From Solirubrobacter phytolaccae (GTDB lineage: Bacteria; Actinomycetota; Thermoleophilia; Solirubrobacterales; Solirubrobacteraceae): a DNA stretch of 64,000 nt. The notes beneath the pieces were generated by a model, which had not been told where the DNA came from, did not search any database, and saw nothing but the letters and a program-made list of their open reading frames with translations. The position numbers and the translations under genes were made by a program. Numbering within the stretch: the first letter of the stretch is position 1; each line of letters opens with the position of its first letter. This document shows, piece by piece, positions 30,537 to 64,000 of this stretch. The stretch lies in NCBI RefSeq assembly GCF_027587195.1, contig NZ_JAPDDP010000034.1, positions 1 to 64,000 of the forward strand, in the 5' to 3' direction.

Positions 30537-30544
<8 letters not shown>
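29090..30544 (-). CDS. 2-aminobenzoate (benzoate-type)-CoA ligase
   Basis: 484 residues of the ANL adenylating superfamily. [16 protein letters not shown] is the ATP loop, [15 protein letters not shown] the A5 motif, GWNLTGDAF and [19 protein letters not shown] the hinge region, and [14 protein letters not shown] holds the C-terminal catalytic Lys. The sequence resembles benzoate/aminobenzoate-CoA ligases. With the aminobenzoyl-CoA monooxygenase/reductase in the same operon, anthranilate is the most likely substrate. Overlaps the acyl-CoA dehydrogenase end by 8 bp and is coupled to RidA by GTGA. Ligase call sure, substrate inferred from context. Confidence 0.88.
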
Positions 30545-31595
<1,051 letters not shown>

Positions 31596-32378
31596 CTAGT
31601 CGCCCTCGAAGACCGGCCGCTCCTTGGCCAGGAAGGCGCGGTACGCCCGCTCGAAGTCCGCCGTCTGCATGCAGATGGCCTGGGCCTGCGCCTCGGCCTC
31701 GATCGCCGCCGGCAGCGACATGTCCCACTCCTGGTCGAGCATCGTCTTGGTCATGGCGTGCGCGAAGTTCGGGCCGGACGCGAGCGAGGCCGCCAGCTCC
31801 GCCGCCTCGCCCTCCACGTCCAGGACGACGGAGTTGAAGAACCCCCAGCGCTCGCCTTCCTCGGCGCCCATCGAGCGCCCCGTGTAGAGCAGCTCGGCGG
31901 CGCGGCCCTGGCCGACGATCCGCGGCAGCATCGCGCACGCGCCCATGTCGCAGCCCGCGAGCCCCACGCGCGTGAACAGGAACGCGACCTTCGCGCGCGG
32001 GGAGCCGAGCCGCAGGTCCGAGGCCGTCGCGATCATCGCCCCCGCGCCCACGCAGACGCCGTCGACCGCCGCGATCACCGGCTTGCCGCAGCCCTTGATC
32101 GCCTTCACCAGATCGCCCGTCATGCGCGTGAAGCGCAGCAGCTCCGGCATCGTCATCTCGGTCAGCGGGCCGATGATGTCGCGCACGTCGCCGCCGCTGC
32201 AGAAGTTGCCGCCCTCGCCCGCGATCACGACCGCGTCGACCGTGTCGTCGTACGTGAGCGCGCGGAAGTGATCGCGCAGCGCCGCGTAGGACGCGAACGT
32301 CAGCGGGTTCTTGCGCTCCGCCCCGATCAGCCGGACGAAGCCGACGCCGTCGCGGACCTCCCACCGAAAACCGCTCAC
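31596..32378 (-). CDS. Enoyl-CoA hydratase/isomerase family protein
   Basis: 260 residues from GTG 32378, crotonase fold. [18 protein letters not shown] forms the first oxyanion-hole segment and [22 protein letters not shown] the second. [24 protein letters not shown] places Cys-Asp where hydratases have a catalytic Glu, so ring-hydrolase or isomerase chemistry is possible. Its SD is GGAGG just after the 60-nt intercistronic element (32398-32457). Likely acts on alicyclic CoA esters of the anthranilate route. Confidence 0.85.
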
Positions 32379-32397
32379 GCCGAACCCTCCGGACGCT

Positions 32398-32457
32398 CGA
32401 GGGCGAGCCCCTGGGGCGAGCCCTCGTCGCGACGCGAGCCGCTAGGCGAGTGTCGCC
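32398..32457 (-). repeat. Intercistronic structured element, copy A
   Basis: Read on the minus strand it begins GGCGACACTCGCC two nt after the SDR stop codon. The first 29 nt match copy B (48454-48514) at 28 positions. A 29-nt hairpin follows: stem CGAGGGC/GCCCTCG, a TC/TC internal loop, inner stem GCCCC/GGGGC. It ends about 5 nt before the SD of the enoyl-CoA hydratase gene. Between copies, two stem pairs change from G-C to T-A and A-T on both arms. It is in sense orientation with the operon. Confidence 0.8.
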
Positions 32458-32459
32458 TT

Positions 32460-33131
32460 TCAGCCATGGACGCCTCCGCCGTCGATCAGGAGCGTCTGGC
32501 CGTTGATCGCGCCCGCCTCGTCCGCCGCGAAGAACCGCACCGCGAACGCGACCTCCTCCGGCTCGATCAGCCGCCCCAAAGGCGTCATCCCGACCAGCGC
32601 CGCCTCACCGTCCTTGCCCGTGCGGGACTCGATGTTGGCGATCGTCGTGTCGGTCATGTCGGAGCGCACGTAGCCCGGGCAGACGCAGTTCGCGGTCACG
32701 CCCGTGCCGGCGAGTTCGGTCGCGAGCGCGCGCGTGAAGCCGAGCACCGCGTGCTTGGAGGCGGTGTAGCCGCTCGTGTAGCGCGAGCCGTGCACGGACG
32801 CGACGCTCGCCACGGTCACGATCCGGCCGCGGTTGCGCTCCCGCATCCCCGGCAGCACCGCACGCGTGGCCAGGAAGGCGCCCGTCGCGTTCACGCGGAT
32901 CTGGCGCTCCCACTCCTCCAGCGAGGTGCGATGGACGGGCGCGCTGGACGACACGCCGGCGTTGTTGACGAGCACGTCGACCTCCAGCTCACCGAGCACG
33001 CGCGCCACGGCCGCCTCGTCGGTCACGTCCATGTCCGCGCTCCCCAAGGCGAGCACCTCGTCGCCGGAGAACGCCGCGGTGATCGCCGCCCCGATCCCGC
33101 GCTTGCCGCCCGTGACCACGACCCGCCTCAC
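32460..33131 (-). CDS. Short-chain dehydrogenase/reductase (operon member)
   Basis: 223 residues from GTG 33131, GTGA overlap with the upstream bifunctional gene. NAD(P) motif [15 protein letters not shown] at [13 protein letters not shown], catalytic Ser in VTVASVAS and YTASK (Tyr-x3-Lys). The C-terminal [12 protein letters not shown] is typical of FabG-type proteins. Likely oxidises the 3-hydroxyacyl-CoA formed from the hydroaromatic ring in the anthranilate-CoA pathway. Family sure, substrate inferred. Confidence 0.9.
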
Positions 33132-35269
33132 GCCGGGACCTGCGTGTCGAAGCGCCGGAGCGGCATCCGCCGCACGTCCTTACCGGTCTGCGGCTCACGC
33201 GCGCCGGACCGGTACTGCGGGATCCATTCCATGTCCACTCCTTGGTCGGCGGCGGCGTGCAGGGTCCAGTGCGGGTCCCACAGGTGCGGGCGCGCCAGCG
33301 CGCACAGGTCCGCGCGGCCCGCGAGGATGATCGTGTTGACGTCGTCGTAGGACGAGATCGCGCCCACCGCGATCACCGGGATCTCGGCCTCGTGGCGGAT
33401 GCGGTCGGCGTACGGCGTCTGGAAGGAGCGCCCGTACGCCGGCTGCTGGTCGGGCGAGACCTGGCCGGTGGAGACGTCGACGATGTCGCAACCCGCGTCG
33501 CGCAGCCGGTGCGCGAACGCGACCGCGTCGTCGCCGTCGAAGCCGCCGTCCACCCAGTCCGTGGCGCTGATGCGCACCGACATCGGCTTCTCGGCCGGCC
33601 ACACGGCGCGGCAGGCGCTGAAGACCTCGAGCGGGAACTTCGCGCGGTCCGCTCCGTACGCGTCGTCGCGCACGTTCGTCAGCGGCGACAGGAACGACGA
33701 CAGCAGGTAGCCGTGCGCCATGTGGATCTCCAGCAGGTCGAACCCGCAGGCGGCGGCGCGCTCCGTGGCGGCCACGAACTGCCCGACGACGTCGTCGAGG
33801 TCCGCGCGGGTCATCTCCCGCGGCGTCTGGTGCGCATCCGACCACGGCACCGGCGACGGCGCGATCAGCGGCCAGCCACCGTCGTCGAGCGGCTCGTTGT
33901 CGCCCTCCCACATCAGCTTCGTCGCACCCTTGCGGCCCGCATGCCCGAGCTGCGCGCCGATCGCCGACCGCGAGTGCGCGTGCACGAAGTCGACGATCCG
34001 CTGCCACGCGTCCACGTGCTCGTCGCGGTAGAGGCCGCCGCAGCCGGGCGTGATCCGCCCCTCCGCCGACGTGCAGATCATCTCCGTCATGACGAGCCCG
34101 GCGCCACCGATCGCCCGCGCGCCGAGGTGCACGAGATGGAAGTCGCCCGGCGTTCCCTCGACCGACGTGTACATGTCCATCGGCGAGACGACGACGCGGT
34201 TGCGGAGCTCCAGCCCGCGCAGCGTGAGCGGCGTGAACATCGGCGGCGCCCCTTCCACGAACTCCGGGTCGCGCATGCGCAGCTCGCCGAACGTGATCCG
34301 GCGCGACCGCGTGAGCAGGTTGAACGCGAACTGCCGCGGCTCCTGGCGCACGTAGCGACCGATGCCCTCGAACCACTCCAGCGACCCCTGCGCGGCGCGT
34401 TGCGTGGACTCCACGATCGGCCGCCGCTCGGCCTCGTACGCGTCCAGATCGCCCTCACGCACCGCCCAGGCGAGCGAGATCGCGTCCTCCATCGCCAGCT
34501 TCGTCCCGCTGCCGATCGAGAAGTGCGCGGTGTGCGCGGCGTCCCCGAGCAGGACGACGTTCCCGCGCCGCCAGACCGGATTGCGGACCGTGACGAAGTT
34601 GATCCAGCGCGTGCGGTTCTCGATCAGCCGGTAGCCGAACAGGTCCTCGCACTGCGCGCGGTCCAGCTGCACGCCCGTGCTCTCGACGATGAACGTGGAT
34701 CGAACATCGCTGTACGGATACGCGTGCACCTGCACGACCCCGCCGGGCGTCTCGGCGATGATGAACGTGAAGGCGTCGAAGACGTGGTCGGTGCCGAACC
34801 ACGCGTAGGTCGCGCGCCGCCGGTCGAGCGACGGCTCGAAGCCGTAGCGCGCCCGCAGCGTGCTGTTGACGCCATCGGCCGCCACCACGAGATCGCCCTC
34901 CAGCTCCGACACCTCGGAGCCGAACCGCAGGTCGACGCCCAACGCCGCCGCCCGCCGCTGGAGGATCCCCAGCAGCGCCTTCCGGCCCATCGCCGAGAAG
35001 CCGTGGCCGCCGCTCGTGACGACCTCGCCGCGGTAGTGCACGTCGATCTCGCTCCAGCGCACGAACGAAGCCGCGATCTCCGCGTAGGACTCCGGGTCCG
35101 CCGCCTCGAACGCGGCCAGCGTCTCGTCGCTGAACACCACGCCGAACCCGAACGTGTCGTCCGGCGCGTTGCGCTCGTGGACGACGACCTCGTGCGCCGG
35201 ATCCAGGCGCTTCAACAGGATCGAGAGATACAGCCCGCCGGGTCCTCCACCCGCGATGGCGATCCGCAT
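33128..35269 (-). CDS. Bifunctional 2-aminobenzoyl-CoA monooxygenase/reductase-type flavoprotein
   Basis: 713 residues from ATG 35269; the upstream open frame is antisense to the isomerase gene. Residues 1-340 are an FAD hydroxylase: [20 protein letters not shown] and [20 protein letters not shown] (GD motif). From about 350 an old-yellow-enzyme barrel follows ([43 protein letters not shown]). This fusion is known for 2-aminobenzoyl-CoA monooxygenase/reductase and salicylyl-CoA 5-hydroxylase, which hydroxylate and, in the first case, also reduce the ring. The CoA ligase and beta-oxidation genes downstream support the anthranilate version; salicylate is the alternative. First gene of the operon. 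Confidence 0.88.
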
Positions 35270-35308
35270 GTCCTGACAGTACTGCGGCTCCATATCCTGA
35301 GGCCGCAC

Positions 35309-42776: not shown

Positions 42777-43490
42777 ATGACAGAACCGGACCGACCATTG
42801 GCGGTCGTGACCGGCGCCTCCAGCGGCATAGGGCTGGAGTTGGCTCGCCAGTTCTCCAAGCACGGCTTCGACCTCGTCGTCGCGGCTCGCGCACCCGCCG
42901 TCCATGCCGTCGCCGTCGACCTCGACGCCGAGTCCGTCGAGGTCGACCTCGCGACCCCTGAGGGCGTCCTCGCGCTGCACGAGCGCCTCCGGCACCGCCC
43001 GGTCACCGCCCTCGCGCTGAACGCCGGCGTCACCGCCCGCAGCGACGACCTCGACCGCGAGCTGGAGCTCGTCGACCTCGACGTCCGCTCGCTCGTGCAC
43101 CTCGCGCGCCTGCTCACCGGCGAGATGGCGGCGCGCGGACGCGGACGCGTGCTGGTGACGGCCTCGATCGGCGAGGCCTTCCCCGGCCGATACCAGGCGG
43201 CGTACACCGCGAGCAAGGCGTTCGCCCGCGCGTTCGGGATCGGCCTGCGCCACGAGCTGCGCGACCACGGCGTCAGCGTCACCGTGCTCGAGCCGGACGC
43301 GCCCGCCGAGAGCGCGGCCCCGACCGACGCTCCCTCCCACGTCGCCTCGCAGGCCTTCGAGGCGCTGATGGCCGGCCGCGAGACGGTGGTCGCGCCGTCG
43401 ATCACGAAGCAGGCCACGCACTTCGTCAGCCGCGTGCTGCCGGCCGCCGTGACGGCGCGCGTGAGCGGCCTGCTCAGCCGGCCCCGCTAG
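42777..43490 (+). CDS. Short-chain dehydrogenase/reductase
   Basis: 237 residues from ATG 42777 (AGGTGG upstream); GTG 42759 is an alternative. VVTGASSGIGLELARQF binds NAD(P), LALNAGV replaces NNAG, VLVTASIGE supplies Ser and YTASKAFARAF the Tyr-x3-Lys pair. It resembles DltE-type oxidoreductases. Substrate unknown. It converges on the PaaI gene with shared CTAG stops. Confidence 0.88.
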   Translation: MTEPDRPLAVVTGASSGIGLELARQFSKHGFDLVVAARAPAVHAVAVDLDAESVEVDLATPEGVLALHERLRHRPVTALALNAGVTARSDDLDRELELVDLDVRSLVHLARLLTGEMAARGRGRVLVTASIGEAFPGRYQAAYTASKAFARAFGIGLRHELRDHGVSVTVLEPDAPAESAAPTDAPSHVASQAFEALMAGRETVVAPSITKQATHFVSRVLPAAVTARVSGLLSRPR

Positions 43491-43891
43491 CGCGGCCGCA
43501 CCGCGATCGTCACGCGGCTCACCGCGACGACCCGCCCCTCGCCGTCCGTGTGGTCGACGTCCCAGACCCAGGTCGTGCGCCCGCGGTGGCGTGCCCGGGC
43601 GCGCGCGGTGATCCAGTCGCCGCGCGCGGGCTTGAGGAAGCTCGTCTCGTTCGAGGAGCCCATCGCCGCGAAGCCGTCCGGATGCACGACCGCCACCGTC
43701 GCCTCGGTGGCAATCATCTCGGCCAGCGCCGCGTACGCGCCGCCGTGCACGAGCCCGAAGCGCTGGCGCACGCGGTCGGCGACCGGGAAGCGCGCCTCCG
43801 CCTCCCCGTCGCCGATCGACACCACCTGAAAGCCGAGGACGCCGTCGAGGCAGTCCTCCTCCCCGACGACCTCGCCGCCGACCTTGGGCAT
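43487..43891 (-). CDS. PaaI-type hotdog thioesterase
   Basis: 134 residues. Hotdog fold with RFGLVHGGAYAALAEMIATEATVA (the HGG motif and the acidic Glu/Thr helix) and GSSNETSFLKPARGDWITARARARHRGRTTWVWDV. Hydrolyses acyl- or aryl-CoA; in phenylacetate systems it removes dead-end CoA esters. It begins 2 bp after the feruloyl-CoA synthetase stop on the same strand, so it may release CoA from cinnamoyl- or benzoyl-type thioesters made by that enzyme. Confidence 0.9.
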   Translation of the reverse strand: MPKVGGEVVGEEDCLDGVLGFQVVSIGDGEAEARFPVADRVRQRFGLVHGGAYAALAEMIATEATVAVVHPDGFAAMGSSNETSFLKPARGDWITARARARHRGRTTWVWDVDHTDGEGRVVAVSRVTIAVRPR

Positions 43892-43893
43892 CC

Positions 43894-45714
43894 CTACGGG
43901 CAGATGATCACCTCCGCGCTCGGCCGCTCGGAGAACAGCGCGTCGACGAACGCGCCCCGCCGCTGCAGCGCCGCGCGCTGGTTGACGTAGCCCTTGTCGG
44001 TGATCTCGTTCGCGTCCAGCGACGGCGGCTCCGCCAGCAGCACGACGCGCTCCACGCGGGTCGAGGAGCCGGGGTGCTCGCGGTTGTAGGCCTGCAGCCG
44101 CTCACGCACGAACGCGTGGATCTTCGGCGAGGAGATCAGCGTCTCCATCTCCGCGTCCGCCGCCTCGCCGATCTCGCGCGCCGCACCCGGGTTCATCCAC
44201 GCCAGCAGCCCCACGTAGTCGCGGTCGTGGCCGCAGACCACGGCGTCCATCAGCAGCGGCGAAGCGGCCGCGAGCGCTTTCACGCGCAGGGTCCCCACGG
44301 ACACGAACGTACCGGTGAGCAGCTTGAAGTCCTCGACGACCCGACCGTCGAACACGACGCCCTGGTTGGGGTCATCGGGGTCCTCGAGCTTGCCCGCGTC
44401 CCCCGTCCGGTACCAGCCGTCCTCGTCGAACGCCTTCGCGGTGAGGTCGGGCTGGCCGAGGTAGCCGGGCGTGACGTTCGGGCCCTTCACGCGCATCTCG
44501 AGCTTGCCCTCGACCGGCACGAGCTTGAGCTCCACGCCCGGCACGGGCACGCCGATCACGCCCGCGCGGTCGATCGGGAAGTGGGCCGCGGTGGCCAGCG
44601 GCGACGTCTCGGTCAGGCCCCACGAGGAGGTCATCATCACCGGCTCGCCGCGCGCCTCGCGAGCGACCGCCTCCAGCCGCGTCCACAGGTCCTGCGGGAG
44701 CGCGGCGGCGGCGTAGAAGATCAGGTCCAGGCGCTCGAAGAACTTCGCGCGCAGCGCCTCGTCGCGCTCGAGGAACGGCAGCAGCGCGCCGTAGCCCGCG
44801 GGCACGTTGAAGTAGATCGTCGGCGCGACCTCCGTCAGGTTCTTGACCGTGATCGGCATCAGCGGCGGCGCCGGGCGGCCGGCGTCGATGTAGAGCGTGC
44901 CGCCGCGCTTGAGGATCAGGTTGAAGTTGTGGTTGCCGCCGAACGTGTGGTTCCACGGCAGCCAGTCCACGAGCACGGGCGGCGTGCCGGCCGTGAACGG
45001 CCAGATCTGCGCGAGCGACTGCTGGTTGGCGCCCAGCATCCCGTGCGTGTTGATCACGCCCTTGGGCATCGCCGTCGAGCCCGACGTGAACAGGATCTTG
45101 GCCACGCTGTCGGGACCGACGGACTCGAGCGCGTCCTCGACGTCCATCGACGGCCGCGTCTCCAGCAGCTCGCCGAAGTGCGTCGCGCCGGTGCCGCTGG
45201 AGAGGACGAGCTCGGCGCCGCCGAAGTCCACCGCGGACAGCACGCCGCTGAACGGCCCGGCGTCCGACGCGTACACGAGGCCGGGCTTCACGAGCGCCGC
45301 GATGTGCTTGACCTTGCTGTAGGTCTGGCTCATCAGCGAGTACGCCGGCGAGACCGGCGCGACGGGCACGCCGGCGAGGAACGCCCCTAAGGTCAGCAGC
45401 GCGTGGTCGATCGCGTTGCCCGACAGGATCAGCAGCGGGCGCTGGGGACCAAGGCCGCGGTCGAGCAGCGCCTGCGCGACGCTGTTCGCCTTGCGCCCGG
45501 CCTCACCCCACGTGAGCTCGATCCAGTCTCCCTCCGGACCGCGCTCGGCGAGGAACAGCCGGTCGGGAGCCTCGCGCGCCCAGTGGCGCAGCAGCAGGCC
45601 AAGGCTCGCCTCATAGGGCTCGAGCTCCACCTCCGACCGCAGGATCAGGCTGCCGTCGGGCGCGCCCGAGGCGACGATCCGGGGCGCCGCCAGCGCAGGC
45701 TGGACAACCGTCAT
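43894..45714 (-). CDS. fcs: Feruloyl-CoA synthetase-type ligase
   Basis: 606 residues from ATG 45714 (GGAGGAGGGAGAG upstream). ANL superfamily: KILFTSGSTAMPKGVINTH is the ATP loop, DWLPWNHTFGGNHNFN is characteristic of the feruloyl-CoA synthetase branch, SSWGLTETSP, GWYRTGDAG and VFDGRVVEDFKLLTGTFVS (hinge) follow. Activates hydroxycinnamates to CoA esters. Downstream lies a PaaI thioesterase, upstream an aldehyde dehydrogenase that could oxidise the aldehyde released from such CoA esters, but no feruloyl-CoA hydratase/lyase is adjacent. Confidence 0.88.
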   Translation of the reverse strand: MTVVQPALAAPRIVASGAPDGSLILRSEVELEPYEASLGLLLRHWAREAPDRLFLAERGPEGDWIELTWGEAGRKANSVAQALLDRGLGPQRPLLILSGNAIDHALLTLGAFLAGVPVAPVSPAYSLMSQTYSKVKHIAALVKPGLVYASDAGPFSGVLSAVDFGGAELVLSSGTGATHFGELLETRPSMDVEDALESVGPDSVAKILFTSGSTAMPKGVINTHGMLGANQQSLAQIWPFTAGTPPVLVDWLPWNHTFGGNHNFNLILKRGGTLYIDAGRPAPPLMPITVKNLTEVAPTIYFNVPAGYGALLPFLERDEALRAKFFERLDLIFYAAAALPQDLWTRLEAVAREARGEPVMMTSSWGLTETSPLATAAHFPIDRAGVIGVPVPGVELKLVPVEGKLEMRVKGPNVTPGYLGQPDLTAKAFDEDGWYRTGDAGKLEDPDDPNQGVVFDGRVVEDFKLLTGTFVSVGTLRVKALAAASPLLMDAVVCGHDRDYVGLLAWMNPGAAREIGEAADAEMETLISSPKIHAFVRERLQAYNREHPGSSTRVERVVLLAEPPSLDANEITDKGYVNQRAALQRRGAFVDALFSERPSAEVIICP

Positions 45715-47208: not shown

Positions 47209-48138
47209 ATGACGGCGGTGGAGGAGCTCGCGCCCCGTAGCGAGGACGAGGTGCGCGCCCATCTGGCCGCCGGCAAGCTGGTCGAAGGGCTCCAGCACAT
47301 GTCCCCGGAGTACCTGAAGGGGATCCGCCGCATCCTCACCGTCTCGGCCGACACCGAGCTCGTCTCCGCCCCCGCGTACCTGCGCGCCGCGGCGCACGCG
47401 CCCGCGCTGAACAACTTCGGCTCCGCGGTCTCGATCATCCAGGACGAGCTCGCGCACGCGCACATCGGGTACCGGCTGCTCGGGGACCTCGGCGTGGACA
47501 TGCCCGCGCTGATCTACGAGCGCGAGGCGCGCGCGTTCAAGTACCCGTACGCCTTCGACGTGCCGCTGGACTCCTGGTACGAGCTCGTGCTGGCCAACGC
47601 GCTGTACGACCAGGCCGGGTTCGTGCTGCTCAGCGATGTGCACCAGTCGTCGACGTTCGGGCCGTGGAAGCGCGCGCTCGCGAAGGTGGACAAGGAGGAG
47701 ACGTTCCACCTGCGGCACGGGCGCACGTGGGTGAAGAAGTTCGCCGCCGACGCGGACCACAAGCGCAAGCTGCAGTCCTCGCTGGACTGGATGTTCATCC
47801 TCACGCTCGAGTGGTTCGGGCTCCCGGACGCGCAGAAGAAGCACGGCATCCAGCTCGAGTACGGCTTCAAGGGCAAGACCAACGACGAGCTGCGCCAGGA
47901 CTGGATGGGCCACGTGGTCCCGTTCATGGACGAGGTCGGGCTCAACGTGCCCGCGCACTTCGACGAGGAGACCCAGCGCTACGTCATCGACTGCCCGTTC
48001 CCGCAGGCCTTCGACTCCGAGAAGAAGGAGTGGGGCGGCGTCGAGATCGGCTGGGACGAGGTCATGGTGCGCTGGAAGGGCCGCGGGCCGATGAACGAGA
48101 CCTACGTCGCCAAGCTGCAGAAGGGCTACCGCGGATGA
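47209..48138 (+). CDS. paaA: Phenylacetyl-CoA epoxidase subunit A
   Basis: 309 residues from ATG 47209 (GGAGGAGAG upstream). Catalytic di-iron subunit of the complex that epoxidises phenylacetyl-CoA. Iron-ligand helices are visible: AVSIIQDELAHAHIGYRLL (ExxH), the Glu in SWYELVLANALYDQAGF, and KVDKEETFHLRHGRTWV (EExxH). The C-terminal ETYVAKLQKGYRG is typical. First gene of the operon; its TGA overlaps the paaD-like gene as ATGA. Substrate and role follow established knowledge of the Paa pathway. Confidence 0.95.
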   Translation: MTAVEELAPRSEDEVRAHLAAGKLVEGLQHMSPEYLKGIRRILTVSADTELVSAPAYLRAAAHAPALNNFGSAVSIIQDELAHAHIGYRLLGDLGVDMPALIYEREARAFKYPYAFDVPLDSWYELVLANALYDQAGFVLLSDVHQSSTFGPWKRALAKVDKEETFHLRHGRTWVKKFAADADHKRKLQSSLDWMFILTLEWFGLPDAQKKHGIQLEYGFKGKTNDELRQDWMGHVVPFMDEVGLNVPAHFDEETQRYVIDCPFPQAFDSEKKEWGGVEIGWDEVMVRWKGRGPMNETYVAKLQKGYRG

Positions 48139-48452
48139 GCGCCGCCGTCGAGGCCCGGTTGTGGGAGGCGCTGACCGAGGTCGAGGACCCCGAGATCCCG
48201 ATCTCCGTCGTGCACATGGGGCTGATCGTGGCGATCGCGTATGCCGACGGCGTCGTCGACCTCAAGCTCACGTTCACGGCCATGGGCTGCCCGGCGATGG
48301 AGTTCATCCAGGACGACATCCGCGAGCGGCTGCTCGCCGAGCCGGACGTGGACGAGGTCCGGATCGAGATCGTCTGGGACCCGGTGTGGACGCGCAAGAT
48401 GATCCGCGAAGAGGCGCGCGAGACGATGCGCGGCCTGGGGATCGTCGCGTGA
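48135..48452 (+). CDS. paaD: PaaD N-terminal (MIP18/DUF59) domain protein
   Basis: 105 residues. EVEDPEIPISVVHMGLIVAIAYADGVVDLKLTFTAMGCPA is the MIP18/DUF59 fold with the reactive Cys in GCPA, then VRIEIVWDPVWTRKMI. PaaD assists iron-sulfur cluster insertion in the epoxidase system. Usual PaaD proteins are about 160 residues with a C-terminal zinc ribbon; here the ribbon is missing and a separate Cys4 protein is encoded at 49370-49549. Located second in the operon, before paaB, not in the usual A-B-C-D order. Confidence 0.9.
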   Translation: MSAAVEARLWEALTEVEDPEIPISVVHMGLIVAIAYADGVVDLKLTFTAMGCPAMEFIQDDIRERLLAEPDVDEVRIEIVWDPVWTRKMIREEARETMRGLGIVA

Positions 48453-48453
48453 T

Positions 48454-48514
48454 GGCGACACTCGCCTGGCGGCTCGCGTCGCTGTCGAGTACTCGCCCCG
48501 GGGGCTCGTACTCG
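48454..48514 (+). repeat. Intercistronic structured element, copy B
   Basis: Begins GGCGACACTCGCC one nt after the paaD-like stop. The first 29 nt match copy A (32398-32457) at 28 positions. The 29-nt hairpin (48486-48514) has outer stem CGAGTAC/GTACTCG, a TC/TC internal loop and inner stem GCCCC/GGGGC. It ends just before the GGGAGGTGGAGGT ribosome-binding stretch of paaB. Compared with copy A, pairs 5-25 and 6-24 of the hairpin change on both sides. Same orientation relative to transcription as copy A. Confidence 0.8.
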
Positions 48515-48528
48515 CGGGAGGTGGAGGT

Positions 48529-48711
48529 ATGACCGTTTGGGAGGTCTTCGCCCGCAAGGCCTACGAGGATCCGCTCCACCACGTGGGGACGGTGACCGAG
48601 TCCGACGTGGACCTCGCGCTCGTGTCCGCGCGCTCGATCTACGACGAGCAGCCGTGGATCCACATGATCATCGTGCCGCGCGACTCGATCCGGGAGGCGA
48701 TCAAGCCATGA
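48529..48711 (+). CDS. paaB: Phenylacetyl-CoA epoxidase subunit B, short form
   Basis: 60 residues with a strong SD (GGAGGTGGAGGT). VWEVFARKAYEDPLHHVGTV and LALVSARSIYDEQPWIHMIIVPRDSI follow the PaaB pattern (EVFxR, HVGxxxAxD, ALxxARDxYxRR, WVVP). Usual PaaB proteins have about 95 residues; this one is a minimal version. PaaB bridges the A-C complexes in the epoxidase. ATGA overlap with paaC. Confidence 0.85.
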   Translation: MTVWEVFARKAYEDPLHHVGTVTESDVDLALVSARSIYDEQPWIHMIIVPRDSIREAIKP

Positions 48712-49373
48712 AGACGCTCCTCGCCTCGCTGGCCGACAACAAGGCGGCGCTCGGCCGCCGCTACGCCGAGTGGGCCGTGTCCGCGCCGACACTCGAGTCC
48801 GCCGTCGCCGCCGCCGCGATGGCGCAGGACGAGCTCGGCCACGCGCGCTCCACCTACCCCGTGCTCAAGGGCCTGGGCGTCGAGGCCAACGAGGACGGCT
48901 TCGGCGGCGACAAGCGCTTCGCCCTGCTCGACGAGGAGCTGCCCGACTGGAACGCGTTCATCGCCGCGAACCTGGTCGTGGACGGCGTGCTCACCACGTT
49001 CGTCGCCTCGTGCGTGGACTCGTCGCTGACCCCCATGGCCCAGCGCGCGAAGAAGATCCTCCAGGAAGAGGGCTCGCACCGGGCACACGGCGAGGCCTGG
49101 GCCCGGCGACTGCTCCGCGGCGAGCAGCGCGACCCGTTCGTCGCGCGCGTGCTGGAGACGTGGGAGCACGCGAGCCGCTGGGTCGGTCCGGACGACGACG
49201 CCGAGCTGGCCGCCGCGGTCGAGGCCGGCGAGGTCTCACGCACCGCCGCCGAGCAGCGCGAGCTGATGCGCTCGTGGCTGACCGACCTGCTGGCCGCCGA
49301 GGGCGTGACCATCACCCTGCCCGAGCCGACATTCGGCGGTTGGGACGCCGAACGCCGCCGGTGGCAGCCATGA
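48708..49373 (+). CDS. paaC: Phenylacetyl-CoA epoxidase subunit C
   Basis: 221 residues. Structural ferritin-like partner of PaaA: AAAAMAQDELGHARSTYPVLKGLG and AKKILQEEGSHRAHGEAWARRLL correspond to the helices of the non-catalytic subunit, which holds the CoA substrate with PaaA. Length is a little under the usual 240-250. Coupled by ATGA at both ends. Confidence 0.92.
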   Translation: MKTLLASLADNKAALGRRYAEWAVSAPTLESAVAAAAMAQDELGHARSTYPVLKGLGVEANEDGFGGDKRFALLDEELPDWNAFIAANLVVDGVLTTFVASCVDSSLTPMAQRAKKILQEEGSHRAHGEAWARRLLRGEQRDPFVARVLETWEHASRWVGPDDDAELAAAVEAGEVSRTAAEQRELMRSWLTDLLAAEGVTITLPEPTFGGWDAERRRWQP

Positions 49374-49549
49374 CCTGTCCCTTCTGCGACTCCCCCGAAA
49401 TCGAGCGCATCGCCCAGTGGGGCGGCCAAATCATCACGTCTCAGTGGCGCTGTAAAACTTGCGCCAGCTATTTCGAGGCGGTCAGGGAGGACTTTGACAA
49501 TGAACTGGAAAGCGGACCTGGAGGAGGTCGAGCGGCAGTACGCGGCTGA
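49370..49549 (+). CDS. Stand-alone zinc ribbon, the missing PaaD C-terminal half
   Basis: 59 residues, ATGA overlap with paaC. CPFCDSPEIER, then RCKTCASYFEAV: two CxxC pairs about 25 residues apart, matching the zinc ribbon that normally ends PaaD (CPxCxS to C..C...F). Together with 48135-48452 it reconstitutes PaaD from two genes. Its 3' end overlaps the next gene's start (49500) by 50 bp, so its last residues are uncertain or unconstrained. Confidence 0.75.
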   Translation: MTCPFCDSPEIERIAQWGGQIITSQWRCKTCASYFEAVREDFDNELESGPGGGRAAVRG

Positions 49550-58674: not shown

Positions 58675-59697
58675 ATGATCGGCCCCGCGCTTCTTGCCTC
58701 CGCGTCCATCTTCCACGGCACGCCCGTCCCGCCCGAGCAGGCGCCGTGGCTCGTCACGCTCACCACGCGGAGCGTCGTCTGCGGCGGCGCGCTGATCGCG
58801 CCCGACCGCGTGCTCACCGCCGCCCACTGCGTCCAAGGCGCCGATCCTGGCCGGCTGAGCGTGCGCCTCGCCGGCGAGCGGCGCGCCTGGGAAGGCGCGG
58901 TGTTCCCCACGACCTACCGCGAGATCCCCTCGCCCGTGCGGCCCGAGGACCCGGGCGCGTCGGCGACGGTCGACGACATCGCGGTCATCCGGCTCAAGAC
59001 ACCGGTGCGGAACGTTTCGCCGGTCCCGCTCGCCGACCCGCCGCCGGTCGCGGGCGAGCCCTCACTTACGCTCGGGCACGGCCGCACCGGCCCGCTGCCC
59101 GCGGGGCCGTCGCGGGACGCGCTCGGCGCCGCGCAGCAGGTGAGCGACGACTGCGCGGCCGCGTACGGCCCGACGCTCTTCCACCCCGCGCGGCACCTGT
59201 GCACGCTGGACACGACGCCCACCGCCGCGCAGGCGTGCAAGGGCGACAGCGGCGGGCCGGTGCTCGTGCAGCGCGGCGGCGGGTGGGCGCTCGCGGGCGT
59301 CGTCACCTGGGGCGGCGAGACCTACGGCCTGGACTGCGGCGAGGGCATGCCGGACGTGTCCGAGCGCGTGGACGCCCACCGGGCGCTGCTCAGCGGCGAC
59401 GGACCCGTGGCTCCGTGGGCAGAGCGCCGGGTGCGTGTCCGTCGCACGGGCAAGGTGCGCCGGTGCGTAGTCGGCACGTGGCACCCGGCCTCCGCCACGT
59501 TCAAGGTCAGCTGGTGGCGCGAGGGCAAGCCGCGGACCGAGCAGACCCCTGAGGGCACGGCGATCCTCCCCGGCAAGCGCACCTACCTGAAGGGCGGCGG
59601 CCGAACCCGGACCCTGACCTCCGGGCGCGTCGGCTGCTCCGTCACGGCGAGGACCGCCGGCGGCTGGGCCACCGAGGACTCCTACAACCAGCTCTAG
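58675..59697 (+). CDS. Trypsin-like serine protease, secreted
   Basis: 340 residues from ATG 58675 (ATG 58633 or 58654 possible). MIGPALLASASIFHGTPVPPEQAPWLVTL: a short signal-like start, then a chymotrypsin-type N-terminus. Catalytic triad visible: VLTAAHC (His), DDIAVIRLKTP (Asp) and ACKGDSGGPVLV (Ser). VVTWGGETYGLDCGEGMPDVSERVDAH follows. The last 80 residues form a small extra domain with two Cys (VRRCVVGTWHPA, GRVGCSVTA). Probably an extracellular protease. Confidence 0.88.
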   Translation: MIGPALLASASIFHGTPVPPEQAPWLVTLTTRSVVCGGALIAPDRVLTAAHCVQGADPGRLSVRLAGERRAWEGAVFPTTYREIPSPVRPEDPGASATVDDIAVIRLKTPVRNVSPVPLADPPPVAGEPSLTLGHGRTGPLPAGPSRDALGAAQQVSDDCAAAYGPTLFHPARHLCTLDTTPTAAQACKGDSGGPVLVQRGGGWALAGVVTWGGETYGLDCGEGMPDVSERVDAHRALLSGDGPVAPWAERRVRVRRTGKVRRCVVGTWHPASATFKVSWWREGKPRTEQTPEGTAILPGKRTYLKGGGRTRTLTSGRVGCSVTARTAGGWATEDSYNQL

Positions 59698-59966
59698 GCC
59701 TGGTAGTCCCGCAATCCGCGTGACGGCGGGCCGAGCTGCCGATCCAGCCGCAGGCTGCCGACCGCCACCGCGACCAGCATCAGCACGTACCCCGCCCAGC
59801 CGCCGACCGTGCGGCTGATGGCAAGCATCAGGATCAATGCGGCGAGCCAGACCAATGGCCGCCACGGGATGGCCGGCAGCGCGAACGAGAAGCGCCTCGG
59901 CCGTTGTGGATTGTCGTCGGGCAGCCCCCACCCAGGCCCGGGATCTTTGACCAGACCAACGAACAT
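59694..59966 (-). CDS. Small membrane protein
   Basis: 90 residues from ATG 59966. N-terminal soluble part MFVGLVKDPGPGWGLPDD, then two close TM segments (PLVWLAALILMLAISRTV, GYVLMLVAVAVGSLRL). No family recognised. Its stop forms a shared CTAG with the protease gene. Confidence 0.55.
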   Translation of the reverse strand: MFVGLVKDPGPGWGLPDDNPQRPRRFSFALPAIPWRPLVWLAALILMLAISRTVGGWAGYVLMLVAVAVGSLRLDRQLGPPSRGLRDYQA

Positions 59967-60139
59967 GGGATCCAGGCTACCCCGCGCCGGACGCCGGGAT
60001 GTCCGCCCGCGCGCCAAGTGCGTGACAGACCGCACACGGTGATCAAGTTGCGTACTGACAAACGCTTGCGTCTGCACATTCGTGGTCAGAACGCCCAACT
60101 TTGTTGCACGGTTCGTCCAGCGAGGTACCGTTGCGAGAA
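59967..60139 (+). promoter_or_regulatory. Upstream region of the ammonia-lyase gene
   Basis: 173 bp without a gene. It is AT-richer from 60040 onward and holds two direct copies of TTGCGT 25 bp apart, the second inside ACGC-TT-GCGT. No clear -10/-35 pair and no strong terminator are visible. Probably the promoter of the downstream gene and of the small membrane protein gene. Confidence 0.3.
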
Positions 60140-61735
60140 ATGACGGATCTGCTGCACCAGGACACGGGCGTCCACGTCGATCTCGACGGCGGCTCGCTCA
60201 CGATCGCCGACGCCGTGCGGCTCGCTCGTCACGGTGGGACCGCCACGCTCTCCTCCGTGGCGGCCCGCCGTGTCGAGGCGGCGCGGGCGCTGAAGCTCGA
60301 CCTGATCGCCAACGAGATCCCGATCTATGGCGTCACCACCGGGTTCGGGGACAGCGCGCACCGCCAGATCGCGCCCGAGAAGGCCGCGGCCCTGCAGCAG
60401 AACATGCTGCGCTTCCTGGGCGCCGGCACCGGCCAGATCGCGAACCCCGAGGTGACGCGGCTGACGATGCTGTTCCGCGCCAACTGCTTGGCGAAGGGCA
60501 ACAGCGGTGTCCGCCTCGAGGTGATCGAGCAGCTGCTGACGCTGCTCAACCACGACATCCTGCCGCTGATCCCCGAGCGTGGGTCGTGCGGTGCGTCGGG
60601 TGACCTCGTGCCGCTGTCGTACGTCGGCCGCGCGCTCGTCGGCGAGACCGAGGTGCTCTACGACGGCGACGTCCGCGAGGCGATCGACGTGCTTGTCGAC
60701 CTCGGCATCAAGCCGCTCGAGCTCGAGGCCAAGGAAGGGCTCGCGCTCACCAACGGCACGTCGTTCATGTCCGGCTTCTCCGTGCTCGCCGCGCACGACG
60801 CGCGGGAGCTCGCGTTCGTGGTCGAGCTGTGCACGGCGATGGCCTCACAGGCGCTGCTCGGCAACCACGGGCACTTCAACGCGTTCCTGTTCGAGGCCAA
60901 GCCGCACCCGGGCATCATCGAGAGCGCGGCGAACGTGCGCATGCTGCTCGACGAGTCCCAGCTCACGCACGACGCGGAGGAGATCGTCCCGCTCGAAGGC
61001 GCCGGCTTCCGCGAGCTCACGCGCTCGGTCCAGGACAAGTACTCGGTCCGCTGCGCGCCGCACATCGTCGGCGCCCTGCGCGACACGCTCGAGTGGGTGG
61101 ACCGCTGGATCGAGATCGAGATCAACTCGTCCGACGACAACCCGCTCTTCGACGTCCCGGGCGGCCGCGCGCAGAGCGGCGGCAACTTCTACGGCAGCCA
61201 CATGGCGCAGGGCATGGACGCGCTGAAGATCGCGCTGGCCAACCTCTGCGACCTGATGGACCGGCAGCTCGAGCTGGTCGTGGACGAGAAGTTCAACGCC
61301 GGCCTGACGCCCAACCTGATCCCGTACTTCGCCCCCGACGACTTCGAGGCCGGTCTCCATCACGGCTTCAAGGGGATGCAGCTCTCGTGCTCGGCCCTCA
61401 CTGCCGAAGCCTTGAAGCTGTGCAACCCGGCGAGCATCCATTCGCGCTCGACCGAGGCCCATAACCAGGACAAGGTCTCCATGGGGACGATCAGCGCTCG
61501 TGACGCGCGCTCGATCGTGGAGATCGCTCAGCACATCGCCGCGATTCACCTGATCGCGCTCGCGCAGGCCCTGGACCTGCGCGGGGTCGAACAGGCCAGC
61601 CCGAAGGTCCGTGAGGCGCACGCGCTCATCCGTGCGCGCGTCGCCCCGCTGGACCGCGACCGACGGATGGACCGTGACATCGCCTCCGTCGTCGAGCTGA
61701 TCCGGTCCGGCGAGCTGAGTCACGTCTTGGCGTAG
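60140..61735 (+). CDS. MIO aromatic amino acid ammonia-lyase, phenylalanine-type selectivity
   Basis: 531 residues from ATG 60140. Removes ammonia from an aromatic amino acid using the MIO group formed from Ala-Ser-Gly (residues 152-154 in GSCGASGDLVPLSY). IYGVTTGFGDS has the catalytic Tyr. The selectivity pair in QQNMLRFLGAG is Phe92-Leu93; characterised histidine lyases have Ser-His, tyrosine lyases His-Leu, phenylalanine lyases Phe-Leu. It would therefore favour phenylalanine, giving cinnamate. The region IHSRSTEAHNQDKVSMGT is histidine-lyase-like. No hut genes are nearby. An annotation as hutH would be unsafe; aminomutase activity is another option. Confidence 0.9.
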   Translation: MTDLLHQDTGVHVDLDGGSLTIADAVRLARHGGTATLSSVAARRVEAARALKLDLIANEIPIYGVTTGFGDSAHRQIAPEKAAALQQNMLRFLGAGTGQIANPEVTRLTMLFRANCLAKGNSGVRLEVIEQLLTLLNHDILPLIPERGSCGASGDLVPLSYVGRALVGETEVLYDGDVREAIDVLVDLGIKPLELEAKEGLALTNGTSFMSGFSVLAAHDARELAFVVELCTAMASQALLGNHGHFNAFLFEAKPHPGIIESAANVRMLLDESQLTHDAEEIVPLEGAGFRELTRSVQDKYSVRCAPHIVGALRDTLEWVDRWIEIEINSSDDNPLFDVPGGRAQSGGNFYGSHMAQGMDALKIALANLCDLMDRQLELVVDEKFNAGLTPNLIPYFAPDDFEAGLHHGFKGMQLSCSALTAEALKLCNPASIHSRSTEAHNQDKVSMGTISARDARSIVEIAQHIAAIHLIALAQALDLRGVEQASPKVREAHALIRARVAPLDRDRRMDRDIASVVELIRSGELSHVLA

Positions 61736-61777: not shown

Positions 61778-63403
61778 GTGCGCTACGTCGTCTGTGCCGC
61801 GCTCGTCTTCTTCGCCCTGACGAGCCGTGCCGCGGCCGCGCCGTTCGTCGTCGGGTCGGGCGACCAGCCCGCGGTCGCCGTGGACGCGGCGGGCACCGCG
61901 TACGTCGCCTGGAACGGCCCGGACGCGCAGGACACACCGCAGTACTGCCGGCTGCCGCGCGGGGCGACCGCCTGCGACGTGTCGCTGGCCCTGCCGATCA
62001 CTGCCGGGACAGGCTCGACGACCCGGCCGTACGTGTCGCTGAACGGCGGGCGCGTCTCGATCCTCGTGCACCGCTTCGGCCAGGCCACGGGGATCACCCA
62101 GTACGTCTCGACGGACGGCGGCGCGACGTTCTCCTCCCGTGTCGCGGGCGGGAACGTTCTCATCTACGAGGCGGCGGACGGGCCCGGCGACAGCGTCTCG
62201 GTCGTGACGAGCGCGGACGGCCGCGGCGGGCTCTTCCAGAACCTCTCGCTGACCGGTCCCGCGCCGGCGGGCTTCGCGCTGCTCGACGCGGCGCGGCTGT
62301 ACTACGGCTCGGTCGGCCTGGACGGCGCCAACCCGGTGGTGACCTTCAGCACCGCCGGCGAGCTCGCCGCGTTCCGCCGCTACTCCGGGGCTGGCGACCT
62401 CAACGACGCCGCCAGCTGGTCGCCGCCCGTCGAGCTCGGCTTCATGCAGTACCCGCGACAGGCGAACGGCGCACCGGGCCTGTTCCTGCTCGCGGGCGAC
62501 GCCGCCGGGACGATGGTCGTGCGGCGCTGGACCGGCTCGACGTTCGGCACGCCGGTTGCGGTCGGCCCCGGGGACGCGAGCGAGTCGCACCTGTCCATCG
62601 ACGCGGGCGGACGGCTGCACGCGGTCTTCCCCGCGCTCGACGCCGCCGGCTACCACGCGCGGCACGCCGTCTCCGACGACGGCGTGACCTGGACCACGAC
62701 GACGCTCGCGAGCGCGCCCTTCGTCCAGCAGGCCGGGATGCGAGTGGCGGCCGCGGCGGATCATGTGGGCGTCGCCGTGTGGGGCGCGAGCGGGCAGATC
62801 GAGGTGTCGGCGATCCCGGTCGCGACGCCCGCGCCTCCCCCACCACCGCAGCCGCCACCGGCGATCCCGGTGCCCGAGCCGGTGGCCGGCAGGACCGTCG
62901 TCGTCCAGCCGAGCGGGACCGTGCGGCTGCGGCTCGCCGGCCGCTCGCGCTTCGTGGCGCTGACGGCGCTCGACGACGTGCCGATGGGCGCGACGATCGA
63001 CACCAAACGCGGCGCGGTCGTGCTGCACGCCCGCAACACGCGCACGGGCGCGGTCGAGACCGTGCGGCTCTCCGACGGCTGGTTCAAGGTCAGCCAGAGC
63101 GGGCGCGTCGTGAACTTCACGCTCAACGAGCCGCTCGCGCGCTGCCCGAGGCGCGGTGGCGCGGCGCAGCAGAAGAAGCCGAAGTCACGCAAGCTGTGGG
63201 GTGACGGCAAGGGCGCGTTCCGCACCTCGGGCAAGTACAGCGCGGCGACGGTCCGCGGCACCCGCTGGCTCGTGCAGGACACGTGCGCGGGCACGACCAC
63301 GCGCGTCACGCAGGGCGCGGTCACCGTGACGCCGAAGCTCCGGCGCGGCCCGGCCGTGGTCGTGCGCGCCGGGAAGCAGTACACCGTGCGCGCTCGTCGC
63401 TGA
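61778..63403 (+). CDS. Secreted protein, beta-propeller-like with a C-terminal FecR-like domain
   Basis: 541 residues from GTG 61778 (GGGAGGGTCG upstream). Signal peptide MRYVVCAALVFFALTSRAAA. The N-terminal 350 residues are blade-like (AVDAAGTAYVAWNGPD, ILVHRFGQATGITQYVSTDGG, SHLSIDAGGRLHAVFPALD). After a Pro linker (PAPPPPPQPPPAIP) a C-terminal domain has RLSDGWFKVSQSG, LWGDGKGAFRTSGKYSAATVRGT and RAGKQYTVRARR, resembling FecR-like domains of secreted proteins. Role unknown. Confidence 0.75.
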   Translation: MRYVVCAALVFFALTSRAAAAPFVVGSGDQPAVAVDAAGTAYVAWNGPDAQDTPQYCRLPRGATACDVSLALPITAGTGSTTRPYVSLNGGRVSILVHRFGQATGITQYVSTDGGATFSSRVAGGNVLIYEAADGPGDSVSVVTSADGRGGLFQNLSLTGPAPAGFALLDAARLYYGSVGLDGANPVVTFSTAGELAAFRRYSGAGDLNDAASWSPPVELGFMQYPRQANGAPGLFLLAGDAAGTMVVRRWTGSTFGTPVAVGPGDASESHLSIDAGGRLHAVFPALDAAGYHARHAVSDDGVTWTTTTLASAPFVQQAGMRVAAAADHVGVAVWGASGQIEVSAIPVATPAPPPPPQPPPAIPVPEPVAGRTVVVQPSGTVRLRLAGRSRFVALTALDDVPMGATIDTKRGAVVLHARNTRTGAVETVRLSDGWFKVSQSGRVVNFTLNEPLARCPRRGGAAQQKKPKSRKLWGDGKGAFRTSGKYSAATVRGTRWLVQDTCAGTTTRVTQGAVTVTPKLRRGPAVVVRAGKQYTVRARR

Positions 63404-63419
63404 AGCTACCTTGCGCGTC

Positions 63420-64000
63420 GTGCGCGCCACGTTGCTCGCCGTCGTGCTGGTCCTGATGGGTGCCGTCGAGGCCCGCGCGGACGCCTGGGTACCGATTGAG
63501 CACGCGCAGCTCGACCCGGTGCTCCGCGCCGCCGACGGCACGCAGGTCACCGTCTACTCGGGCGCGACGGATCGCCCGGCGCTCGAGATCGAGCGGCCCG
63601 GCGCGGCACCGCGCCGCGTCTACCTCAGCCGGGAGTGGGCGCAGGACATCGACGTCGCCGTCGCGCCCGGCGGCTGGGTCGCGGCGATCTGGGCCGAGGA
63701 GCTCGGCGGCCGGCTCGGGGCCGCGATCATCCGGCCGGACGGGCGCATGGTGCGACGCGACGGCCTTCCCGCCCGCTCCGTGACCTCCCCGAAGGCGGCG
63801 ATCGACGCCAAGGGCCACGCGACGTTCGCGTGGGTGGGGACGGACGGGCTGCGCACAGCCGGCTCGTCGCTGCGCCCGACCCGGGTCCGGCGCGGCGTGA
63901 CGGCGGCCGACGTCGCCGTGAGCCCGAACGGCCGGCGCGTGCTCGTGTGGACGACCAAGACCGGCGTGCACGCGCGATTGGACGGTGGGCGCGAACGGCG
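63420..64000 (+). CDS. Secreted protein, N-terminal part (runs off right edge)
   Basis: 193 codons visible from GTG 63420; TTG 63411 is an alternative. Signal peptide MRATLLAVVLVLMGAVEARA. Mature part has blade-like repeats (WAQDIDVAVAPGGWVAAIWAEE, PKAAIDAKGHATFAWVGTDG, AADVAVSPNGRRVLVWTTK), similar in style to the preceding gene. Starts 16 bp after it and is likely cotranscribed. Incomplete, function unknown. Confidence 0.7.
   Translation, partial: MRATLLAVVLVLMGAVEARADAWVPIEHAQLDPVLRAADGTQVTVYSGATDRPALEIERPGAAPRRVYLSREWAQDIDVAVAPGGWVAAIWAEELGGRLGAAIIRPDGRMVRRDGLPARSVTSPKAAIDAKGHATFAWVGTDGLRTAGSSLRPTRVRRGVTAADVAVSPNGRRVLVWTTKTGVHARLDGGRER

What the first reader, a model, noticed from the sequence alone, without database searches (positions are those of the whole stretch)
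60140..61735. Ammonia-lyase likely to be misannotated as histidine lyase
The selectivity pair Phe92-Leu93 matches phenylalanine lyases, while overall sequence looks histidine-lyase-like and there are no hut neighbours. Bacterial phenylalanine lyases are rare. Cinnamate made by it could be used by the feruloyl-CoA synthetase-type ligase at 43894 or serve secondary metabolism.
Basis: partly seen in the sequence, partly recalled or inferred. Interest (0 to 1): 0.5.

Follow-up and report, generated by a model that had tools for sequence, protein, structure and literature searches.

The report
Phenylalanine ammonia-lyase feeding aromatic acyl-CoA breakdown
A soil bacterium's gene that resembles a histidine-degrading enzyme most likely removes ammonia from phenylalanine instead, and in the related genomes that have it, it travels with a CoA ligase and an unusual ring-oxidising enzyme set, which suggests a little-known way of using phenylalanine.

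Summary
The 531-residue lyase at 60140-61735 is intact and has Phe92-Leu93 at the selectivity pair. It is not the histidine lyase: the genome has a separate HutH that passes its cut-off and precedes hutU, and the window protein has Gln443 where 20 of 20 HutH-type rows have Glu. Its nearest model is BagA. PMC5651878 reports that Tyr-His goes with strict tyrosine activity in BagA, and that two BagA-like Phe-Leu enzymes (SrPAL, BlPAL) act on phenylalanine only and were misannotated. So the enzyme is a new member of a known kind.

In 61 genomes (own included), the lyase, the ligase (43894-45714) and a divergent PaaA-like subunit (47209-48138) occur in the same 9. In a class sample of 299, all 5 lyase genomes have both partners, and each partner occurs once more without it. 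Lyase and ligase lie 0.2-30 kb apart in all 10 lyase genomes. I propose phenylalanine to cinnamate to cinnamoyl-CoA, then ring epoxidation, perhaps of benzoyl-CoA. All reactions are inferred. Two relatives have Asp-Leu at the pair, against a uniform substrate.

The parts
60140..61735 (+). MIO-type aromatic amino acid ammonia-lyase, 531 aa, predicted phenylalanine ammonia-lyase
60413..60418 (+). selectivity pair Phe92-Leu93
   Evidence: meaning of FL versus YH from PMC5651878
60593..60601 (+). Ala152-Ser153-Gly154, precursor of the MIO group
   Evidence: co-occurrence; adjacency
43487..43891 (-). hotdog thioesterase (4HBT), PaaI-like by position
   Evidence: kept beside the ligase in L119, L135, L137
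45765..47141 (-). aldehyde dehydrogenase, 458 aa, kept beside the PaaA-like set
47209..48138 (+). divergent PaaA-like catalytic subunit (diiron positions kept; TIGR02156 107 bits, cut-off 280)
48135..48452 (+). PaaD-like FeS_assembly_P protein
48529..48711 (+). PaaB-like protein (PF06243)
48708..49373 (+). PaaC-like subunit (PF05138)
49370..49549 (+). 59-aa zinc-ribbon protein, like the detached zinc-ribbon domain of PaaD (PF23451, 36.7 bits, cut-off 27)
   Evidence: orthologue in L135

Best explanation
The gene encodes a phenylalanine ammonia-lyase that turns L-phenylalanine into trans-cinnamate and ammonia by the usual MIO chemistry (about 0.8). The cinnamate is activated by the ligase at 43894-45714 to cinnamoyl-CoA (about 0.65). 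The side chain is then shortened, by beta-oxidation or by hydration and retro-aldol plus an aldehyde dehydrogenase, to benzoyl-CoA or benzoate. The divergent PaaA/D/B/C-like complex epoxidises the ring of an aryl-CoA, and a crotonase and aldehyde dehydrogenases open it (about 0.35 for benzoyl-CoA as the substrate). Shown here: gene integrity, active-site residues, family placement, co-occurrence and gene order. Inferred: every substrate and every reaction.
For: Lyase: FL pair and catalytic residues. It stands apart from 20 HutH-type rows at SH-aLRT 100. The genome has its own HutH-hutU. Two published BagA-like FL enzymes are exclusive PALs. Coupling: lyase, ligase and PaaA-like in the same 9 of 61 genomes. 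In the class sample of 299, lyase is in 5 and each partner in 6, all 5 shared; by genus 3 against 4 of 114 with 3 shared, p about 2e-5. Lyase and ligase are 193 bp to 29.6 kb apart in the 10 lyase genomes. Of the 80 loci, the ligase lies beside the lyase, or one gene away, in 8 of 16 FL/FM loci and in 0 of 64 others. Downstream: a benzoate-CoA-ligase-family gene over cut-off in all 11 PaaA-like genomes and not in G128; no BoxB match in 12 of 12 (no Box organism is among its controls). Phenylalanine hydroxylase is not found in the window's own genome.
Against: The orthologues in G052 and L035 carry Asp-Leu, and those in L034 and L036 Phe-Met, although they keep partners of the set where these could be seen, so the substrate may not be the same throughout. 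In the window the lyase is 14 kb from the ligase with unrelated genes between. In G003 the PaaA-like set is about 110 kb from the lyase; in G028 and G236 it is on another contig. G199 has the PaaA-like set without the lyase, and G128 the ligase without the lyase. The general PAL model is not met (368 of 519 bits). The structural match does not decide the substrate. No enoyl-CoA hydratase or thiolase was assigned to the side-chain steps in the window. Seven of the ten lyase genomes are one genus, and G001 and G006 are nearly the same.
Confidence: 0.6

Rival explanations
1. A phenylalanine lyase that makes cinnamate or cinnamoyl-CoA for a secondary metabolite, and is not part of a catabolic route.
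For: Actinomycete relatives with the same lyase-ligase pair lie among polyketide-type genes: ketosynthase, acyltransferase and carrier protein in L042, ketosynthase-acyltransferase in L043. PAL also serves natural products in enterocin biosynthesis (PMC8773403 passages).
Against: By eye, no polyketide or peptide synthase stood near the window lyase or in the fetched neighbourhoods of the Thermoleophilia relatives. The steady partner there is a PaaA-like ring-oxidation set, and genomes with it have a benzoate-CoA-ligase-family gene.
Confidence: 0.2
2. A tyrosine or broad phenylalanine/tyrosine lyase that makes p-coumarate, like its BagA relatives.
For: Best NCBIfam model is the tyrosine lyase BagA. 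The ligase family is known (recalled) for feruloyl-type substrates. Two orthologues have Asp-Leu, which could bind a phenol.
Against: BagA-type YH is absent; the purified FL enzymes SrPAL and BlPAL showed no significant Tyr activity (PMC5651878). The ligase was found in FL/FM loci only and in none of the 60 YH or FH loci within their flanks.
Confidence: 0.13
3. A second histidine ammonia-lyase.
For: HutH models still hit at 451-459 bits, and automated annotation might name it so.
Against: Below both cut-offs; Ser-His pair replaced; Gln443 for the Glu of HutH types; a HutH-hutU pair is elsewhere.
Confidence: 0.02
4. An aromatic aminomutase that makes a beta-amino acid.
For: The best sequence matches in the PDB are a tyrosine aminomutase; lyases and mutases share the fold.
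Against: All three aminomutase models are far below cut-off (385 of 501, 345 of 800, 258 of 1250). The coupled gene is a CoA ligase.
Confidence: 0.05

Closest known systems
BagA-like phenylalanine ammonia-lyases (SrPAL, BlPAL; also RxPAL of Rubrobacter)
   Same: BagA-like sequence with Phe-Leu at the selectivity pair; misnamed in databases (PMC5651878 section 4 parts 1-2; PMC3903478 passages)
   Different: PMC5651878 links such PALs to fatty acid and polyketide operons; the window enzyme goes with a ligase and a PaaA-like ring-oxidation set. The published sequences were not aligned here.
BagA, tyrosine ammonia-lyase of bagremycin/ferroverdin clusters (FevV in PMC6692506, passages)
   Same: Best-scoring family model (679 bits)
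   Different: Below its strict cut-off of 1000 (as is the YH relative L037 at 881); Phe-Leu instead of Tyr-His
EncP route of enterocin biosynthesis (Phe to cinnamate to cinnamoyl-CoA to benzoyl-CoA)
   Same: Proposed order of reactions, with a benzoate-CoA ligase as side entry (PMC8773403 passages)
   Different: EncP serves a polyketide starter; here the proposed end is ring epoxidation. EncP itself was not compared.
Phenylacetyl-CoA epoxidase PaaABCE
   Same: PaaA, B, C and D-like parts (Pfam families met), diiron positions, fold, PaaX-like and PaaY-like neighbours in some relatives
   Different: About 26% identity to PaaA structures; below the TIGR cut-offs for PaaA, B, C and D; the positions of E. 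coli E49 and K68 are Tyr and Ile in 9 of 9 rows; PaaD split; no PaaE-like gene recognised in the set (the genome was not searched for one)
Box pathway (BoxAB, benzoyl-CoA epoxidase)
   Same: Proposed substrate and the logic of ligase, epoxidase, crotonase, aldehyde dehydrogenase
   Different: No BoxB match in 12 of 12 genomes

Membership tests
Phenylalanine ammonia-lyase (PAL) | Phe-Leu at the selectivity pair | tested here: met
   Phe92-Leu93
Phenylalanine ammonia-lyase (PAL) | MIO tripeptide and catalytic residues | tested here: met
   which residues are catalytic is recalled and from PMC5651878
Phenylalanine ammonia-lyase (PAL) | 19-residue active-site motif of PMC5651878, threshold 18 of 19 | not testable with these tools
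   The residue list is in a figure that is not held; only some of the columns were inspected
Phenylalanine ammonia-lyase (PAL) | TIGR01226 PAL model over cut-off | tested here: not met
   367.6 of 519.15 bits. The model spans 680 positions, longer than this protein.
Phenylalanine ammonia-lyase (PAL) | converts Phe to cinnamate | not testable with these tools
   needs an assay
Aromatic amino acid lyase superfamily PF00221 | over the gathering score | tested here: met
   557.8 bits, cut-off 27.3
Histidine ammonia-lyase | TIGR01225 and PRK09367 over cut-off | tested here: not met
   450.9 of 539 and 458.8 of 524 bits; the HutH on C137 gives 605 and 656
Histidine ammonia-lyase | Ser-His pair and active-site Glu (QED) | tested here: not met
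   Phe-Leu and NQD; 20 of 20 SH rows have Ser, His and Glu. The role of the Glu is recalled.
Histidine ammonia-lyase | hut neighbours | tested here: not met
   none among the neighbours scanned or called
BagA tyrosine ammonia-lyase | NF041222 over cut-off | tested here: not met
   678.9 of 1000 bits; five other BagA-side lyases tested, L037 with YH among them, also fail it
BagA tyrosine ammonia-lyase | Tyr-His pair | tested here: not met
Acyl-CoA synthetase NF009232 (43894-45714) | model over cut-off | tested here: met
   800.5 of 777 bits
Phenylacetyl-CoA epoxidase PaaA (47209-48138) | TIGR02156 over cut-off | tested here: not met
   106.9 of 280 bits; 0 of 61 genomes over cut-off
Phenylacetyl-CoA epoxidase PaaA (47209-48138) | diiron positions and PaaA fold | tested here: met
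   E50, D79-E80, H83, D134, E163-E164, H167 kept in 10 of 10 rows (ligand roles recalled); best structures are PaaA
Phenylacetyl-CoA epoxidase PaaA (47209-48138) | E49 and K68 (E. coli numbering) near the diiron centre | tested here: not met
   Tyr57 and Ile76 in 9 of 9 divergent rows; Glu and Lys in the PaaA-like row L136
Benzoyl-CoA epoxidase BoxB | TIGR03225 match in the genome | tested here: not met
   0 of 12 genomes; the control genomes hold no match over cut-off either

The most novel reading that the evidence does not exclude
Solirubrobacter and a few other Thermoleophilia degrade phenylalanine through cinnamate and cinnamoyl-CoA to benzoyl-CoA, and open the ring with a third kind of aerobic aryl-CoA epoxidase: built from Paa-type parts but acting on benzoyl-CoA, with an altered electron path and another reductase, in organisms in which no Box enzyme and (G028 aside) no usual Paa enzyme was found.
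Probability: 0.3. Interest if true: 0.7.

Novelty: new variant of a known kind. Interest (0 to 1): 0.45.

Why it matters
As an enzyme it is one more bacterial phenylalanine lyase hidden under a histidine-lyase-like sequence, of use for biocatalysis and for correcting annotation. If the linked set works as proposed, it is a catabolic use of such a lyase in bacteria (the bacterial examples I met or recall mostly serve natural products), and it joins the phenylpropanoid entry to a ring-opening system whose catalytic subunit differs from PaaA at two positions near the metal site. It makes a concrete question testable: can a Paa-type epoxidase work on benzoyl-CoA? The known PaaABCE does not (PMC4498308 passage).

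Tried and rejected
Histidine lyase: rejected on cut-offs, residues, and the presence of a real HutH-hutU. Plain BagA tyrosine lyase: rejected as a name on the pair; the cut-off also fails, but it is strict and fails for the YH relative L037 too. Aminomutase: far below cut-offs. Promoter and terminator scan near the gene: no promoter-like site, one terminator-like site on the other strand against 0.5 expected, not used. The 19-residue motif test could not be run because the list is in a figure. Box pathway as the ring-opening system: no BoxB match. Homogentisate route: HPPD is over cut-off in 8 of 12 genomes, so tyrosine breakdown by that route is likely there; phenylalanine hydroxylase was found only in G003, G004 and G005 of 12, so in those three the lyase is not the only possible route.

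Papers: PMC5651878 section 4 parts 1 and 2 (of 3) and passages were read. PMC3903478, PMC6692506, PMC8773403, PMC13186573 and PMC4498308 were seen as passages only; all others as search listings. Ten searches were made. Judged by titles and abstract starts of the rows listed (5 to 20 rows a search, of up to 4,906 hits), none describes this linkage; in PMC13186573 the words Solirubro- and cinnam- do not occur. The library is partial and the lists were cut, so this is not proof that none exists.

Full report
What was checked. The ORF at 60140-61735 is intact (531 aa) and has Phe92-Leu93 at the place of the Ser-His of HutH-type enzymes and of the tyrosine aminomutase. The catalytic residues examined are present.

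What it is not. NCBIfam ranks BagA first at 679 bits (cut-off 1000), then PRK09367 459 (524), HutH 451 (539), tyrosine aminomutase 385 (501) and PAL 368 (519); three further models score lower, and no cut-off is met. As a control, the second PF00221 gene of the genome, on contig C137, passes the HutH cut-off with 605 bits and is followed by hutU with 744 bits. The BagA cut-off is strict: of five other BagA-side lyases tested, among them the Tyr-His relative L037 (881 bits), none meets it, so failing it says little. At column 443 the window has Gln where 20 of 20 SH rows have Glu, and Phe-Leu where they have Ser-His. I conclude that it is not the histidine lyase.

Family and residue evidence. 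A tree of 107 rows puts 20 SH rows on one side and 87 other rows, the window among them, on the other (SH-aLRT 100; quick method, selectivity columns included). The window falls in a clade of 11 Thermoleophilia rows (SH-aLRT 100). The selectivity pair changes at least 15 times on this tree. Between the 20 FL rows and 13 YH rows (12 actinomycete and one Propionivibrio), only columns 92, 93 and 204 separate fully. PMC5651878 (section 4 parts 1-2) reports that His at the second position goes with strict tyrosine activity in BagA, that the BagA-related FL enzymes SrPAL and BlPAL gave no significant activity with Tyr or His, that the four purified enzymes had been misannotated as HAL or TAL, and that FL, YH and FH are interspersed. 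PMC3903478 (passages) used the same Phe-Leu against Ser-His criterion to find the Rubrobacter PAL. The AlphaFold2 model (mean pLDDT 91.6) matches RsTAL His89Phe with cinnamate best by E-value, but wild-type RsTAL, tyrosine aminomutase (higher TM-score), AvPAL and HAL are close behind; this fits the family and does not decide the substrate. The reading as a phenylalanine lyase therefore rests on residues and on published relatives, not on an assay.

Against a uniform substrate: the orthologues in G052 and L035 have Asp-Leu, and those in L034 and L036 Phe-Met.

Where it occurs. The genus is Solirubrobacter by the named relative L039, S. deserti, 92%. In 61 genomes (60 relatives and the window's own), 19 have a match at E of 1e-40 or better. 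Nine of these (G000-G006, G028, G052) have this lyase at 72-100% identity; the other matches are at most 41% identical. The ligase 43894-45714 (E 1e-60 or better) is in the same 9 of 61. The PaaA-like protein 47209-48138 (E 1e-20 or better) is in the same 9 of 61. In a class sample of 299 genomes, overlapping with the first, the lyase (E 1e-110) is in 5 (G000, G001, G002, G052, G236), the PaaA-like (E 1e-60) in these 5 plus G199, and the ligase (E 1e-110) in these 5 plus G128. Counted by genus: 3 of 114 with the lyase, 4 with each partner, 3 shared, p about 1.7e-5. The p-values assume independent genera. Seven of the ten lyase genomes are one genus. G001 and G006 have identical HutH rows and the same lyase neighbourhood in the part both stretches cover, and G001's contig has the length of the S. 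deserti record, so the independent cases are about four genera.

Gene order. The gap between lyase and ligase is 193 bp (G003), 438 bp (G028), 621 bp (G236), 9.1 kb (G001, G006), 10.7 kb (G002), 12.3 kb (G052), 12.9 kb (G004), 14.4 kb (window) and 29.6 kb (G005). In L034 and L144 (L144 and L036 hold the same gene order) an Lrp/AsnC-type gene lies between lyase and ligase; in L120 and L035 such a gene stands next to the lyase (Pfam). Among the 80 named loci, a tblastn with the ligase finds it in 8, all FL or FM: 8 of 16 against 0 of 64, p 4e-7. Restricted to 26 actinomycete loci it is 6 of 12 FL against 0 of 14, p 0.004. Flanks are at most 8 kb and often shorter, so absence means absence there; in G001, which matches L039, the ligase lies just beyond L039's flank. 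The co-occurrence and the FL-linked adjacency together make the ligase the likely user of the lyase product.

The PaaA-like set. The set 47209-49549 encodes PaaA-, PaaD-, PaaB- and PaaC-like proteins and a detached PaaD-type zinc ribbon. The Pfam cut-offs are met, the TIGR subunit cut-offs are not: PaaA 107 of 280, PaaD 70 of 108, PaaB 23.5 of 85, PaaC 67 of 133. A scan with the PaaA model finds 9 of 61 genomes, none over cut-off; G028 has an additional protein at 275 bits, nearly canonical. The model (pLDDT 82.3) matches PaaA structures best. The diiron positions (roles recalled) are kept in 10 of 10 aligned rows, but the equivalents of E. coli PaaA E49 and K68 are Tyr and Ile in 9 of 9 divergent rows, and Glu and Lys in the G028 protein. 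PMC4498308 (passage) describes a lysine bridge near the diiron centre thought to take part in electron transfer; that the changed positions mean another reductase is my inference.

What stands with it. In G052, G028, G236 and G199 the PaaA-like set lies with one or two aldehyde dehydrogenases and a crotonase, and, differing by genome, with a benzoate-CoA-ligase-family gene (whole or in part), a PaaX-like repressor, a PaaY-like protein or an esterase-like protein (some contigs end inside the set). The ligase in L132 scores 537 bits (cut-off 375) and its PaaX-like neighbour 175 (cut-off 265, not met). In the window's own genome a second locus, G000:C80 (L146), holds counterparts: PaaX-like, a benzoate-CoA-ligase-family gene at 528 bits, aldehyde dehydrogenase, crotonase, a ferredoxin-reductase-like flavoprotein and a PaaY-like protein. 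Such a ligase over cut-off is in 11 of 12 genomes tested, that is, in all 11 with the PaaA-like gene and not in G128. BoxB gives no match in 12 of 12; no Box organism is among the controls of that search. This points to benzoyl-CoA, not cinnamoyl-CoA, as the ring substrate, with the lyase and the first ligase as a feeder; G199, which has the set without the lyase, fits that. It is an inference: TIGR02262 is a subfamily model for a 'benzoate-CoA ligase family', and the known PaaABCE does not use benzoyl-CoA (PMC4498308 passage).

Rivals and limits. Secondary metabolism is the main rival: of the actinomycete loci with the same pair, L042 and L043 hold polyketide-type genes. A Tyr or mixed activity cannot be excluded. 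Gene calls outside the window come from a simple codon-position script, which gave no genes for L038, and start sites may be off; names not backed by an HMM call were read by eye.

Verdict. The lyase is a new member of a known kind, a PAL hidden among HutH-like and BagA-like sequences. The pathway around it, if right, is a new variant of the known aerobic CoA-dependent routes. I score interest at 0.45.

Noticed in passing
window 28707-35293: A second aryl-CoA catabolic set: RidA-like and acyl-CoA-dehydrogenase-like proteins (by eye), a benzoate-CoA-ligase-like protein (303 bits, cut-off 375), enoyl-CoA hydratase PRK08258 (over cut-off) and a salicylyl-CoA 5-hydroxylase-like protein (1043 of 1078 bits). 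Homologues of three of these stand near the YH-type lyase of Streptomyces anandii (L037).
   Followed up: partly
G000:C80, L146:7519-19490: PaaX-like repressor, benzoate-CoA-ligase-family gene, aldehyde dehydrogenase, crotonase, ferredoxin reductase-like and PaaY-like genes in one locus of the window's genome.
   Followed up: partly
L012 (G052) and L035, selectivity pair: Lyase orthologues with Asp-Leu (RDLGCG) at the selectivity pair, a combination not seen in the other 105 rows of the tree set.
   Followed up: no
L062 and L064: Lyases of the non-HutH side with Lys-Asn and Leu-Asn at the selectivity pair (Actinomycetes and Chloroflexi MAGs); substrate unknown.
   Followed up: no
window 61778-63998 and contig onward to about 66394: A run of genes after the lyase, some related to each other, whose number varies between species; the first two have no Pfam hit.
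   Followed up: no
window 59694-60098 (-): Small ORF divergent from the lyase, without Pfam hit, with similar ORFs at the same place in L114 and L117 by eye.
   Followed up: no
L028 (G003): G003's second match is an SH-type protein that groups with one of another family (L017, G060) and away from the HutH of the rest of its genus in the tree.
   Followed up: no
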